64,000 nt of DNA from Anaerofustis stercorihominis (GTDB lineage Bacteria; Bacillota; Clostridia; Eubacteriales; Anaerofustaceae): NCBI RefSeq assembly GCF_005844425.1, contig NZ_SPHL01000003.1:26860-90859 (forward strand), written 5' to 3'. Each line of letters opens with the position of its first letter. Position 1 is the stretch's first letter. Positions 19,586 to 22,010 of the stretch are shown piece by piece. Under the pieces are notes generated by a model. The model made no database searches. It had not been told where the DNA came from and was given only the letters and a program-made list of their open reading frames with translations. The translations under genes were made by a program, and so were the position numbers.

Positions 19586-19621
19586 AAAAAAAGAACCGAG
19601 AAATTAAAATTCTCTCGGCTC
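19586..19621 (-). terminator. Rho-independent terminator after alr
   Basis: Stem built on CCGAGA/TCTCGG, extended past one mismatch by GA/TC, with the alr stop codon in the loop and a run of T after it on the minus strand. Confidence 0.75.
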
Positions 19622-20731
19622 TGAATTTAAAATATATTCTCTTTTTACTCTTTTGTTTATACAACATAAAAGCTCATAAGGAATTGTTTCACATAATATA
19701 GCTAAATCTGAAACACTTATATTTTCTCCAAATATTTCAACGCTATCTCCTATGTTTATGTCTGCATCCATAGGAATTTCAAGCATTGTCATATCCATAC
19801 ATACGTTTCCTATTACACTACATTCATATTTACCATTAACAAGAACCTTTCCTTTGTTTGAAAGCTTTCTGTTATATCCGTCTGCATACCCTACACACAT
19901 TACGGCAACTCTTGTTTTTTTATCAGCTGTAAAAGTTCTTCCATAACCTATGGTTTCTCCTTTTTCCACTGTAAAAATATTGCTTATGCTTGTGTGAAAA
20001 GACATAACAGGTTTATAAGGATTAATCTCGGGTTTAATCTCTGAAGGATAAATTCCATAAAGAACAATACCAGCTCTTACACCATCAAGATAATATTCAT
20101 CTAAATCAGTTATCGCGGCAGAATTTGCTATGTGTTTTATTTTTATGTCAAAGCCATATTCTTTAGCTTTATTTATTGCATATTCAAATATTTCATATTG
20201 CATTTTGCTATAAGTTTTATCAACTTCGTCACTTGTTGCAAAATGAGAAAAAATTCCTTCAAATTCAAGATTTGTAAGCTCCTTTAAAGCGGCAAAAGCA
20301 CTGTCAATTTCATGCTTTTTAAATCCAAGTCTGTTCATGCCTGTATTAATTTTAATATGTACCCTTGCTTTTGTATTGTTTTTTAAAGCTTCTTCATTTA
20401 ATTTCTTTGCAAAATCAAGATTGTATATTGCAGGAATAATATTATTTTCTAAAATTTTATTAATCTTTCTATCCGGAACATAACCAAGTATTAATATATC
20501 ACTGTCAATACCATACTCTCTTAGACACATAGCTTCATACACACTGGAAACAGCAAATAAATCAGCTCCTTCTTCCATTAGAACTTTTGCACATATTTCT
20601 GCACCGTGTCCGTATGCATCAGCTTTAATTACAGGTATTACTTTTTTATCTCCAACTTTATTTTTTATTACTCTGTAATTATTAATTAAATTATCTAAAT
20701 TTATCTTTACACCCGTTTGAAATCTTTCCAT
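19604..20731 (-). CDS. alr: Alanine racemase
   Basis: PLP enzyme that makes D-alanine for peptidoglycan; in spore formers a paralogue may act in spores. The PLP lysine is Lys36 in PVIKADAYGHG; HIKINTGMNRLG, GIVLYGIYPS and the second catalytic Tyr region GYADGYNR follow. Length is about 375 residues, normal. The ATG used lies ten bases after GGAG; a TTG two codons upstream is closer to it and could be the real start. A candidate DnaA-box cluster lies immediately upstream. Between alr and groES is a terminator, so this is its own transcript. Confidence 0.95.
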   Translation of the reverse strand: MERFQTGVKINLDNLINNYRVIKNKVGDKKVIPVIKADAYGHGAEICAKVLMEEGADLFAVSSVYEAMCLREYGIDSDILILGYVPDRKINKILENNIIPAIYNLDFAKKLNEEALKNNTKARVHIKINTGMNRLGFKKHEIDSAFAALKELTNLEFEGIFSHFATSDEVDKTYSKMQYEIFEYAINKAKEYGFDIKIKHIANSAAITDLDEYYLDGVRAGIVLYGIYPSEIKPEINPYKPVMSFHTSISNIFTVEKGETIGYGRTFTADKKTRVAVMCVGYADGYNRKLSNKGKVLVNGKYECSVIGNVCMDMTMLEIPMDADINIGDSVEIFGENISVSDLAILCETIPYELLCCINKRVKREYILNSEPREF

Positions 20732-20808
20732 TTTCAAATTACTCCATAATATTCATTTTTTGATAAAATTTTACAAAATATAATGAATTTGTTATCTTTT
20801 CTACAAAT

Positions 20809-20969
20809 TTATACACATATCAACAGACTTATCCACAGTTTTCCACAATTATTCACATTTAAAAGTACTTATTTTAAGGGATTTTGTCTATTTTATACAC
20901 ATGAATTATCAACAATTTTATTATATTTTACATTGATGATGTTTAAAAATCCACAAAAAATGTTGATAA
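20809..20969. other. Cluster of DnaA boxes in the tsaD-alr intergenic region
   Basis: Against the consensus TTATNCACA there are four perfect boxes on the plus strand: TTATACACA (20809), TTATCCACA (20829), TTATTCACA (20849) and TTATACACA (20893). One-mismatch boxes are TTTTCCACA (20839), TTATCAACA (20906) and, reversed, TGTTGATAA (20961); AAATCCACA (20947) has two mismatches. Boxes at 20809, 20829, 20839 and 20849 are in exact 10-base register, so DnaA would load on one face of the helix. Very AT-rich sequence follows up to tsaD. This may be a DnaA-titration or regulatory cluster rather than oriC, because dnaA and dnaN are absent. The whole 268-base gap has no other gene. Confidence 0.8.
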
Positions 20970-21005
20970 TTTTTATTACATTTTTATTAACTTTTTAACT
21001 ATATA

Positions 21006-22010
21006 TTACAATTTTAAGTCAGGATTTGCATTTAAAATCAGACTGTCTTTTTTGTTATTTATATAATTAAAATATCCACTACATCCAATCATTGCAGCAT
21101 TGTCCGTACAATAAACTTTATCAGGAATAAATAATTCTATGCCTTCTTCTTCGCATCGTTTTTTTAGTTCATTTCTCAGCATATCGTTACAAAGAACTCC
21201 ACCACCGACACAAAGTGTCTTCATATTTTCTTTTTTCAGTGCTAACATTGTTTTATTTACTATTGTATCTACAACACATCTGTTAAAGCTTGCACAAACA
21301 TTGTCTATGTTAATCTCTTCATTTTTCATTTTCTTACTATTTAAATAGTTAAGTACCGCACTTTTTAGTCCACTAAAACTAAAATCAAGATTATCCTTAC
21401 CCATCATAACAATAGGAAAATCAATGCTGTGTTCATCTCCTTGTTTTGCATGCTTATCTATTTGAACTCCTCCCGGATAAGAAAGTCCAAGGCTTCTTGC
21501 AACCTTATCAAAAGCTTCCCCCGCAGCATCATCTTTAGTAGAACCAAGAAGTTCGAAATCAGTATAGCTATTAACCTTTGTTATATTTGTGTGTCCTCCG
21601 CTTGCCGTTAAACATACAAAAGGAGGTTTTGCACCCATAAGAAAACTTGCGCTTATATGCCCTGCCATATGGTTTACACCAACTAAGTCTTTATTTAAAC
21701 TAAAAGCAAGAGCTTTTGCATAAGATAAACCTATAAGTAAAGCTCCAACAAGCCCTGGTCCTGTGGTAACGCTTATAAAATCAATATCATCAAAAGTTAC
21801 ACCTGCATCTGATAGTGCTTTATCTACAACACTTGAAATCTTCATTAAATGATTTCTAGATGCAATTTCCGGAACAACCCCTCCGTAAACTTTATGAATA
21901 TCAATTTGTGTATGAATTACGTTTGACCTAACTTTTATACCGTCTTCAACAACTGCAACACTTGTTTCGTCACAGGAAGTTTCAATCGCTAAAGTTAAAA
22001 TACTACTCAT
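21006..22010 (-). CDS. tsaD: tRNA t6A37 threonylcarbamoyltransferase TsaD
   Basis: Transfers threonylcarbamoyl to A37 of ANN-decoding tRNAs together with TsaB and TsaE; essential in most bacteria. The 334 residues show LAIETSCDETSVA at the N-terminus, the metal-binding HMAGH, the ATP-binding LTASGGHTNI and GEAFDKVARSLGLSYPGG, and a late CVGGGVLCN. The start overlaps the end of the bactofilin-like gene by eight bases, so it is translationally coupled and last in the t6A operon. DnaA boxes begin about 40 bases beyond its stop. Confidence 0.97.
   Translation of the reverse strand: MSSILTLAIETSCDETSVAVVEDGIKVRSNVIHTQIDIHKVYGGVVPEIASRNHLMKISSVVDKALSDAGVTFDDIDFISVTTGPGLVGALLIGLSYAKALAFSLNKDLVGVNHMAGHISASFLMGAKPPFVCLTASGGHTNITKVNSYTDFELLGSTKDDAAGEAFDKVARSLGLSYPGGVQIDKHAKQGDEHSIDFPIVMMGKDNLDFSFSGLKSAVLNYLNSKKMKNEEINIDNVCASFNRCVVDTIVNKTMLALKKENMKTLCVGGGVLCNDMLRNELKKRCEEEGIELFIPDKVYCTDNAAMIGCSGYFNYINNKKDSLILNANPDLKL

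What the first reader, a model, noticed from the sequence alone, without database searches (positions are those of the whole stretch)
20809..20969. Helically phased DnaA-box cluster next to tsaD
Within 161 bases there are four perfect TTATNCACA boxes and at least three one-mismatch boxes. Four of them (20809, 20829, 20839, 20849) are exactly 10 or 20 bases apart. Nearly all face the same way, and an AT-rich stretch follows. This looks built for cooperative DnaA loading. It could be a titration or control site, a transcriptional switch for alr or tsaD, or an origin. I recall that Bacillus subtilis has an oriC-distant DnaA-box cluster beside its tsaD (gcp) gene; if correct, the position beside t6A and groE genes is conserved across distant Firmicutes.
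Basis: partly seen in the sequence, partly recalled or inferred. Interest (0 to 1): 0.72.

Follow-up and report, generated by a model that had tools for sequence, protein, structure and literature searches.

The report
Conserved DnaA-box array behind tsaD
Just behind the tRNA-modification gene tsaD, this bacterium and some distantly related Firmicutes carry a row of binding motifs for the replication starter protein DnaA, spaced at whole turns of the DNA helix; [quoted passage not shown]

Summary
The alr-tsaD gap has four perfect and three one-mismatch DnaA boxes as stated; 0 of 20,000 dinucleotide shuffles of that 81% AT gap gave four, and no other group of four lies within 100 bp in the genome. 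It is not oriC: dnaA is on another contig, and in a congener dnaA is 440 kb from tsaD with no skew switch at tsaD.

The main result is comparative. Of 169 Bacillota tsaD loci, 37 have two or more perfect boxes within 600 bp past the tsaD stop: 113 boxes there, 7 in the next 600 bp, 2 for the reversed motif. In 35 of these loci 96 of 108 boxes lie opposite tsaD, with a 10.5-bp period. Carriers span Bacilli, Clostridia and Negativicutes; B. subtilis has a measured high-affinity, ATP-DnaA-preferring site between gcp (tsaD) and ydiF (PMC4447404). The neighbour beyond the array varies and is often convergent, which speaks against a promoter switch. Best reading: an off-origin DnaA cluster of the B. 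subtilis kind, likely titrating DnaA. The groE link is not conserved, two of the four perfect boxes are species-specific, and 132 of 169 loci lack the array. Binding and effect on initiation are untested here.

The parts
20809..20817 (+). perfect DnaA box TTATACACA, first box of the kept core
   Evidence: kept in G001, G002 and (as TTATTCACA) G004
20817..20825 (+). overlapping degenerate box ATATCAACA, middle of the core (VTATCMACA in relatives)
20829..20837 (+). perfect DnaA box TTATCCACA, 20 bp from the first
   Evidence: kept in all four species aligned
20839..20847 (+). one-mismatch box TTTTCCACA (fits TTWTNCACA), kept in the three congeners
20849..20857 (+). perfect box TTATTCACA, peculiar to this species among those aligned
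20893..20901 (+). perfect box TTATACACA, peculiar to this species among those aligned
20906..20914 (+). one-mismatch box TTATCAACA, kept in all four species aligned
20961..20969 (-). one-mismatch box TTATCAACA on the other strand, kept in the three congeners
21006..22010 (-). tsaD; the array lies past its 3' end
   Evidence: Pfam TsaD E 1.8e-94
19604..20737 (-). alr (alanine racemase), next gene on the same strand; the array starts about 70 bp upstream of this ORF
   Evidence: Pfam Ala_racemase_N E 9.5e-70; ORF

Best explanation
The tsaD-alr gap carries a row of DnaA boxes, nearly all on one strand and spaced at helical turns, of a kind that recurs past the tsaD 3' end in 37 of 169 Bacillota tsaD loci; it is predicted to bind ATP-DnaA cooperatively and likely acts as an off-origin DnaA sink that would delay the next start at oriC. 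Shown by sequence: boxes, phasing, one-strand orientation, link to tsaD across classes, absence of origin features. Shown elsewhere: B. subtilis DnaA binds the gcp(tsaD)/ydiF site tightly with strong ATP preference, and removing six extra-oriC clusters together makes initiation early (that gcp/ydiF is one of the six is recalled; the passages seen do not name them). Inferred: that this organism's DnaA fills the array, that the fork doubles it after initiation, and that this lowers free ATP-DnaA.
For: Array confirmed and non-random. Selection on the core: 37/39 and 18/18 bases kept against 121/199. Positional peak: 113 perfect boxes in the 600 bp past the tsaD stop of 169 loci, 7 in the next 600, reversed motif 2. 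Genome-wide test: the doublet VTATCMACANNNTTATNCACA in 293 Clostridia genomes gave 41 hits in 34 genomes (reversed control 1); 22 of the 41 lie next to the tsaD 3' end, every one opposite tsaD in strand (two of the 22 are this genome and its congener G002). In a phylum sample of 249 genomes 10 of 29 newly held loci are at tsaD, again all opposite. 10.5-bp period: mean cosine 0.62 over 79 distances in 35 loci, reached by 0 of 20,000 uniform draws. B. subtilis binding, with about 16-fold more DNA recovered by ATP- than ADP-DnaA, and early initiation on deleting six clusters (reviews). gcp/ydiF is not among the gene sets listed as directly DnaA-regulated in B. subtilis. Own DnaA has the ordinary box-reading motif (GGRDHSTVIHG; motif recalled, sequence).
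Against: No binding or replication data for this organism. The array is absent in 8 of 12 testable genomes of its own family and in 132 of 169 loci overall; on the TsaD tree its presence needs 16 changes (shuffled 33.8), and the tree cannot tell loss from repeated gain. 19 of the 41 Clostridia doublets and 19 of the 29 held phylum ones are not at tsaD. [quoted passage not shown] subtilis, and a tenfold rise in DnaA did not over-initiate B. subtilis. In this genus the array also lies where an alr promoter would.
Confidence: 0.6

Rival explanations
1. DnaA bound here is a transcription switch for alr (or an antisense/terminator control of tsaD).
For: In the four species with tsaD-array-alr (G000, G001, G002, G004) alr is downstream and co-directional (G001 by its sequence only); DnaA is a known regulator of several B. 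subtilis promoters.
Against: Across the 30 array loci the next gene is not constant: 13 have a convergent neighbour with a Pfam hit (5 ABC-F-like, 5 SLT transglycosylase, 2 BioY, 1 GNAT), 4 have alr, 8 have other co-directional genes, 5 are unresolved. gcp/ydiF is missing from the list of directly DnaA-regulated sets in B. subtilis. Promoter-like hits in 20600-21100 are at chance level (7 found, shuffles 5.0, sd 2.5).
Confidence: 0.15
2. It is a nucleotide-switch site: a datA-like ATP-hydrolysis or DARS-like reactivation platform, not a passive sink.
For: Tight one-strand phasing suits a defined DnaA oligomer; the B. subtilis counterpart strongly prefers ATP-DnaA. datA in E. coli works less well near the terminus, and here the four genomes with tsaD in the terminal half lack the array.
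Against: IHF, which datA needs, is reported absent from B. subtilis, as are datA and DARS; IHF was not searched for here. No hydrolysis data were found.
Confidence: 0.13
3. It is an origin or secondary origin of replication.
For: Box cluster with an AT-rich stretch.
Against: dnaA-dnaN is on contig C49 with its own, mostly variant, boxes; in congener G002 dnaA and tsaD are 440 kb apart and sampled GC skew changes sign around 700-860 kb, not at tsaD. No (TA[GA])3 trio run in the gap.
Confidence: 0.02
4. Chance cluster in AT-rich DNA.
For: One-mismatch boxes in the window are at chance level; two of the four perfect boxes are not kept in congeners.
Against: 0 of 20,000 shuffles reach four boxes; recurrence, orientation and period in relatives.
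Confidence: 0.01

Closest known systems
Bacillus subtilis gcp/ydiF DnaA-box cluster (extra-oriC cluster)
   Same: Past the 3' end of tsaD (gcp), many boxes, outside oriC; the tsaD-array-ABC-F convergent order is also seen in L055, L137, L180, L192, L194. Its summit at 627,955 of a 4.2 Mb chromosome is about 0.30 of a replichore (my arithmetic), inside the range found here.
   Different: In the window the neighbour is a co-directional alr. B. subtilis binding is measured, ours is not. I could not read the B. subtilis DNA with these tools, so phasing and the doublet were not checked there.
E. coli datA
   Same: Off-origin DnaA-box locus in the origin-near part of the chromosome; a negative regulator of initiation.
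   Different: Different gene context; depends on IHF and DnaA-ATP hydrolysis; no homology claimed.
oriC of Firmicutes
   Same: Clustered TTATNCACA boxes.
   Different: No dnaA/dnaN beside it, no skew switch, no trio run.

Membership tests
B. subtilis-type extra-oriC DnaA-box cluster at tsaD | Three or more DnaA boxes closely spaced, above chance | tested here: met
B. subtilis-type extra-oriC DnaA-box cluster at tsaD | Past the 3' end of tsaD (gcp) | tested here: met
B. subtilis-type extra-oriC DnaA-box cluster at tsaD | Outside oriC | tested here: met
   dnaA on another contig (distance in the own genome unknown); 440 kb from dnaA in G002
B. subtilis-type extra-oriC DnaA-box cluster at tsaD | Convergent ABC-F (ydiF) gene on the far side | tested here: not met
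   alr in the window; convergent ABC-F-like neighbour in 5 of 30 array loci. Judged a feature of the B. subtilis locus, not a defining one
B. subtilis-type extra-oriC DnaA-box cluster at tsaD | High-affinity, ATP-preferring DnaA binding | not testable with these tools
   only B. subtilis data
B. subtilis-type extra-oriC DnaA-box cluster at tsaD | Loss advances replication initiation (together with other clusters) | not testable with these tools
   B. subtilis six-cluster deletion cited by reviews
oriC | dnaA/dnaN adjacency | tested here: not met
oriC | GC-skew switch | tested here: not met
   (congener G002, 20 sampled stretches)
datA | IHF-dependent DnaA-ATP hydrolysis | not testable with these tools
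   needs biochemistry; IHF genes not searched

The most novel reading that the evidence does not exclude
A phased, one-strand DnaA-box array anchored to the tsaD 3' end is the ancestral off-origin initiator-control locus of the Bacillota, their functional counterpart of datA, older than the split of Bacilli, Clostridia and Negativicutes, and it works only while tsaD sits in the origin-near half of the chromosome: when tsaD moves to the terminus the array there dies and another arises at a similar replichore position (past the 3' end of pyrG, at 0.30-0.31, in two related genomes).
Probability: 0.33. Interest if true: 0.8.

Novelty: new member of a known kind. Interest (0 to 1): 0.63.

Why it matters
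A 2026 review says it remains unknown whether B. subtilis has regulators that balance ATP- and ADP-DnaA, and that datA and DARS are absent there; an older one finds no cluster with a significant role. A box array with helical phase, strand and gene neighbour shared from Bacilli to Negativicutes suggests that one of them is under long-term selection. It names a single short element to delete, move or mutate in many species, and its patchy presence and possible link to tsaD's distance from the origin give natural experiments.

Tried and rejected
Origin at tsaD: rejected by dnaA place and skew. groE synteny: rejected. Strict triad TTATNCACAN{0,1}TATNCACANNNTTATNCACA: only 10 of 293 genomes, 6 of the 10 hits at tsaD, 0 reversed controls; too strict (the window itself fails it), so relaxed to the doublet. 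The doublet was shaped after seeing and the window, so its link to tsaD is not wholly independent of the loci that suggested it; the phylum sample is the fresher test, with a weaker 10 of 29, and 21 of its 51 hits have no held locus.

Position of tsaD against dnaA: nine array genomes at 0.13-0.46 of a replichore; ten without at 0.10, 0.10, 0.19, 0.20, 0.31, 0.36, 0.95, 0.95, 0.96, 0.97 (G210, G221, G226 and G002 are not single-contig and were worked out by hand). By hand the one-sided chance that 0 of 4 terminal genomes carry it is about 0.05, and the genomes are related, so this is a hint only. G295 and G128 were left out because dnaA and tsaD are on different contigs. The other two terminal genomes (G147, G210) were not searched for arrays elsewhere.

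A t6A-DnaA functional link was looked for in papers without a lead. That the tsaD link outside B. subtilis was not found in print rests in an open-licence subset; the two key B. subtilis papers (Okumura 2012, Ishikawa 2007) are not held and may hold comparative remarks.

Full report
CHECK. The gap is 81% AT, yet 20,000 dinucleotide shuffles of it never gave four perfect boxes. The draft genome (2.03 Mb, 85 contigs) has 81 perfect boxes, fewer than the reversed pattern (109), and no other group of four within 100 bp. One-mismatch boxes over the whole window are at chance level, so they carry weight only where relatives keep them.

WHICH BOXES ARE KEPT. Aligning the gap with congeners G001 and G002 and with G004 of another genus of the family, the block 20809-20847 is 37/39 identical in the three congeners and the boxes 20906 and 20961 are 18/18, against 121/199 for the rest of the gap; boxes 20849 and 20893 are 5/18 and thus peculiar to this species. 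The kept core reads as two boxes 20 bp apart with an overlapping degenerate box (ATATCAACA, 20817) between them, then TTTTCCACA.

NOT AN ORIGIN. dnaA-dnaN is on contig C49, with mostly variant boxes upstream as far as the contig goes. In G002 (5 contigs) dnaA is at C5:714 kb and tsaD at C5:275 kb. In twenty sampled 20-kb stretches GC skew is mostly negative left of dnaA, mixed at 700-860 kb and positive at 920-1020 kb; around tsaD (260-300 kb) it is negative on both sides. No (TA[GA])3 run, the recalled DnaA-trio form, is in the gap.

CONSERVATION AT tsaD. 80 named tsaD loci had 24 perfect boxes in 47.8 kb past tsaD against 24 in 556 kb elsewhere; the reversed motif gave 1 past tsaD. 57 distinct loci of the class survey (60 fetched, 3 dropped as duplicates of loci already held) had 55 in 34.7 kb against 25 in 470 kb; the reversed motif gave 1. 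The 60 were picked by hand, a few at most from most families, from the better-matching places, since cut its list of 290. Twenty more loci were added, two of them (G250, G060) already known positives. In all 169 loci (12 of 13 family loci, the 13th being cut off at a contig end, plus 80, 57 and 20), 37 have two or more perfect boxes in the 600 bp past tsaD: family 4 of 12, named 8 of 80, class 18 of 57, added 7 of 20. By 200-bp bins of start position the boxes are 6 and 10 in the last 400 bp up to the stop (those that overlap the stop included), then 71, 25, 17, then 2, 4, 1. Carriers include Kroppenstedtia guangzhouensis (Bacilli), Sporomusa malonica (Negativicutes), Thermovorax subterraneus and Alkaliphilus peptidifermentans. 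On a TsaD FastTree the presence label needs 16 changes (shuffled mean 33.8): clustered but patchy, and gain cannot be told from loss. In the window's own family 8 of 12 genomes lack it.

ARCHITECTURE. In 35 positive loci (two congeners left out) 96 perfect boxes lie opposite tsaD and 12 along it. Distances between the former peak at 20-21, 42, 51-53 and 63-64 bp; for a 10.5-bp period the mean cosine is 0.62 over 79 distances, reached by 0 of 20,000 uniform draws, and it falls for shorter and longer periods. Many distances are shared by descent; with each distinct distance counted once the mean is still 0.42. A doublet, VTATCMACA-NNN-TTATNCACA, recurs. In 293 Clostridia genomes it has 41 hits in 34 genomes (reversed 1). 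Of these, 30 have a held locus, 22 next to the tsaD 3' end and all opposite in strand (this genome and G002 are two of the 22); the other 11 were fetched and none has tsaD near. In a phylum sample of 249 genomes there were 51 hits in 46 genomes (reversed 2), and 10 of 29 newly held loci are at tsaD, all opposite in strand. Of the 27 held search loci not at tsaD (8 of 30 and 19 of 29), 7 are at hpf and 3 at dnaA; 17 matched none of the five proteins tried.

NEIGHBOURS. Beyond the array the gene varies: alr in this clade (4), convergent ABC-F-like (5), SLT transglycosylase (5), BioY (2) or GNAT (1), other co-directional genes (8), unresolved (5), of 30 loci. So the array goes with tsaD, not with one promoter. 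The convergent tsaD/ABC-F order equals that of B. subtilis gcp/ydiF (ydiF as ABC protein; gcp = tsaD recalled). groE is within these loci in 1 of 29 array carriers and 6 of 79 others, own family not counted.

LITERATURE. In B. subtilis the gcp/ydiF region is among eight high-affinity DnaA regions (10 sites, Kd 0.15 uM for ATP- and 0.33 uM for ADP-DnaA; about 16-fold more DNA recovered with ATP-DnaA) (PMC4447404, passages). Removing six extra-oriC clusters gives early initiation (PMC5295017 and PMC13220808, passages; the original Okumura 2012 paper was not held; the passages do not name the six). gcp/ydiF is not in the list of DnaA-regulated gene sets (PMC8203912, passages). In E. coli, datA moved near the terminus works less well, through dosage (PMC5010248, passages), and a box-dense region near the origin is proposed to help titrate DnaA (PMC12371093, abstract passage).

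MECHANISM. After initiation the fork would soon double an origin-near array; each copy would take up ATP-DnaA cooperatively along one helix face, lowering free initiator until growth refills it. Only the DNA anatomy is shown here; binding and effect on timing are inferred from B. subtilis. tsaD lies 0.13-0.46 of a replichore from dnaA in the nine array genomes measured; the four genomes with tsaD near the terminus lack it, and two of these, of one genus (G091, G171), have an array past the 3' end of pyrG at 0.30-0.31, its perfect boxes also opposite in strand to the gene they follow. Six origin-half genomes lack the tsaD array too, so position is at most a part of the story.

VERDICT. A real member of a known kind, the extra-oriC DnaA-box cluster; what I did not find in print is its deep link to tsaD with one-strand helical phasing.

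Noticed in passing
L214, L227, L237, L238, L299-L303 (upstream of hpf): DnaA boxes (two to five perfect ones in the locus) lie upstream of hpf (ribosome hibernation factor) in nine loci of five families: a possible DnaA-to-ribosome-hibernation link; the literature on it was not searched.
   Followed up: partly
L235:5963-6152, L236:5677-5866 (genomes G091, G171): DnaA-box arrays past the 3' end of pyrG and before a NAD-synthetase-like gene (named by eye), at 0.30-0.31 of a replichore, in two congeneric genomes whose tsaD is near the terminus and lacks the array.
   Followed up: partly
L005:7108-7145 (own genome C6:37107-37144); L252:4400: A second array with the same TTATCCACAGTTTTCCACA, past a patatin-like gene and before glnS in the own genome; in G002 glnS is about 3.8 kb away on the other side.
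   Followed up: partly
L006:3391-3410 (own genome C77:23390-23409): A pair of DnaA-box-like sites just upstream of mraZ, start of the division and cell-wall cluster (gene name by eye).
   Followed up: no
not in window; B. subtilis: Another of the B. subtilis DnaA clusters is at ywlC, which I recall to be tsaC, so two of the clusters would flank t6A-synthesis genes.
   Followed up: no
L281, L282, L283: Three genomes of one family share the doublet ATATCCACATTTTTATCCACA at a place where tblastn found neither tsaD, dnaA, dnaN, hpf, glnS nor pyrG.
   Followed up: no
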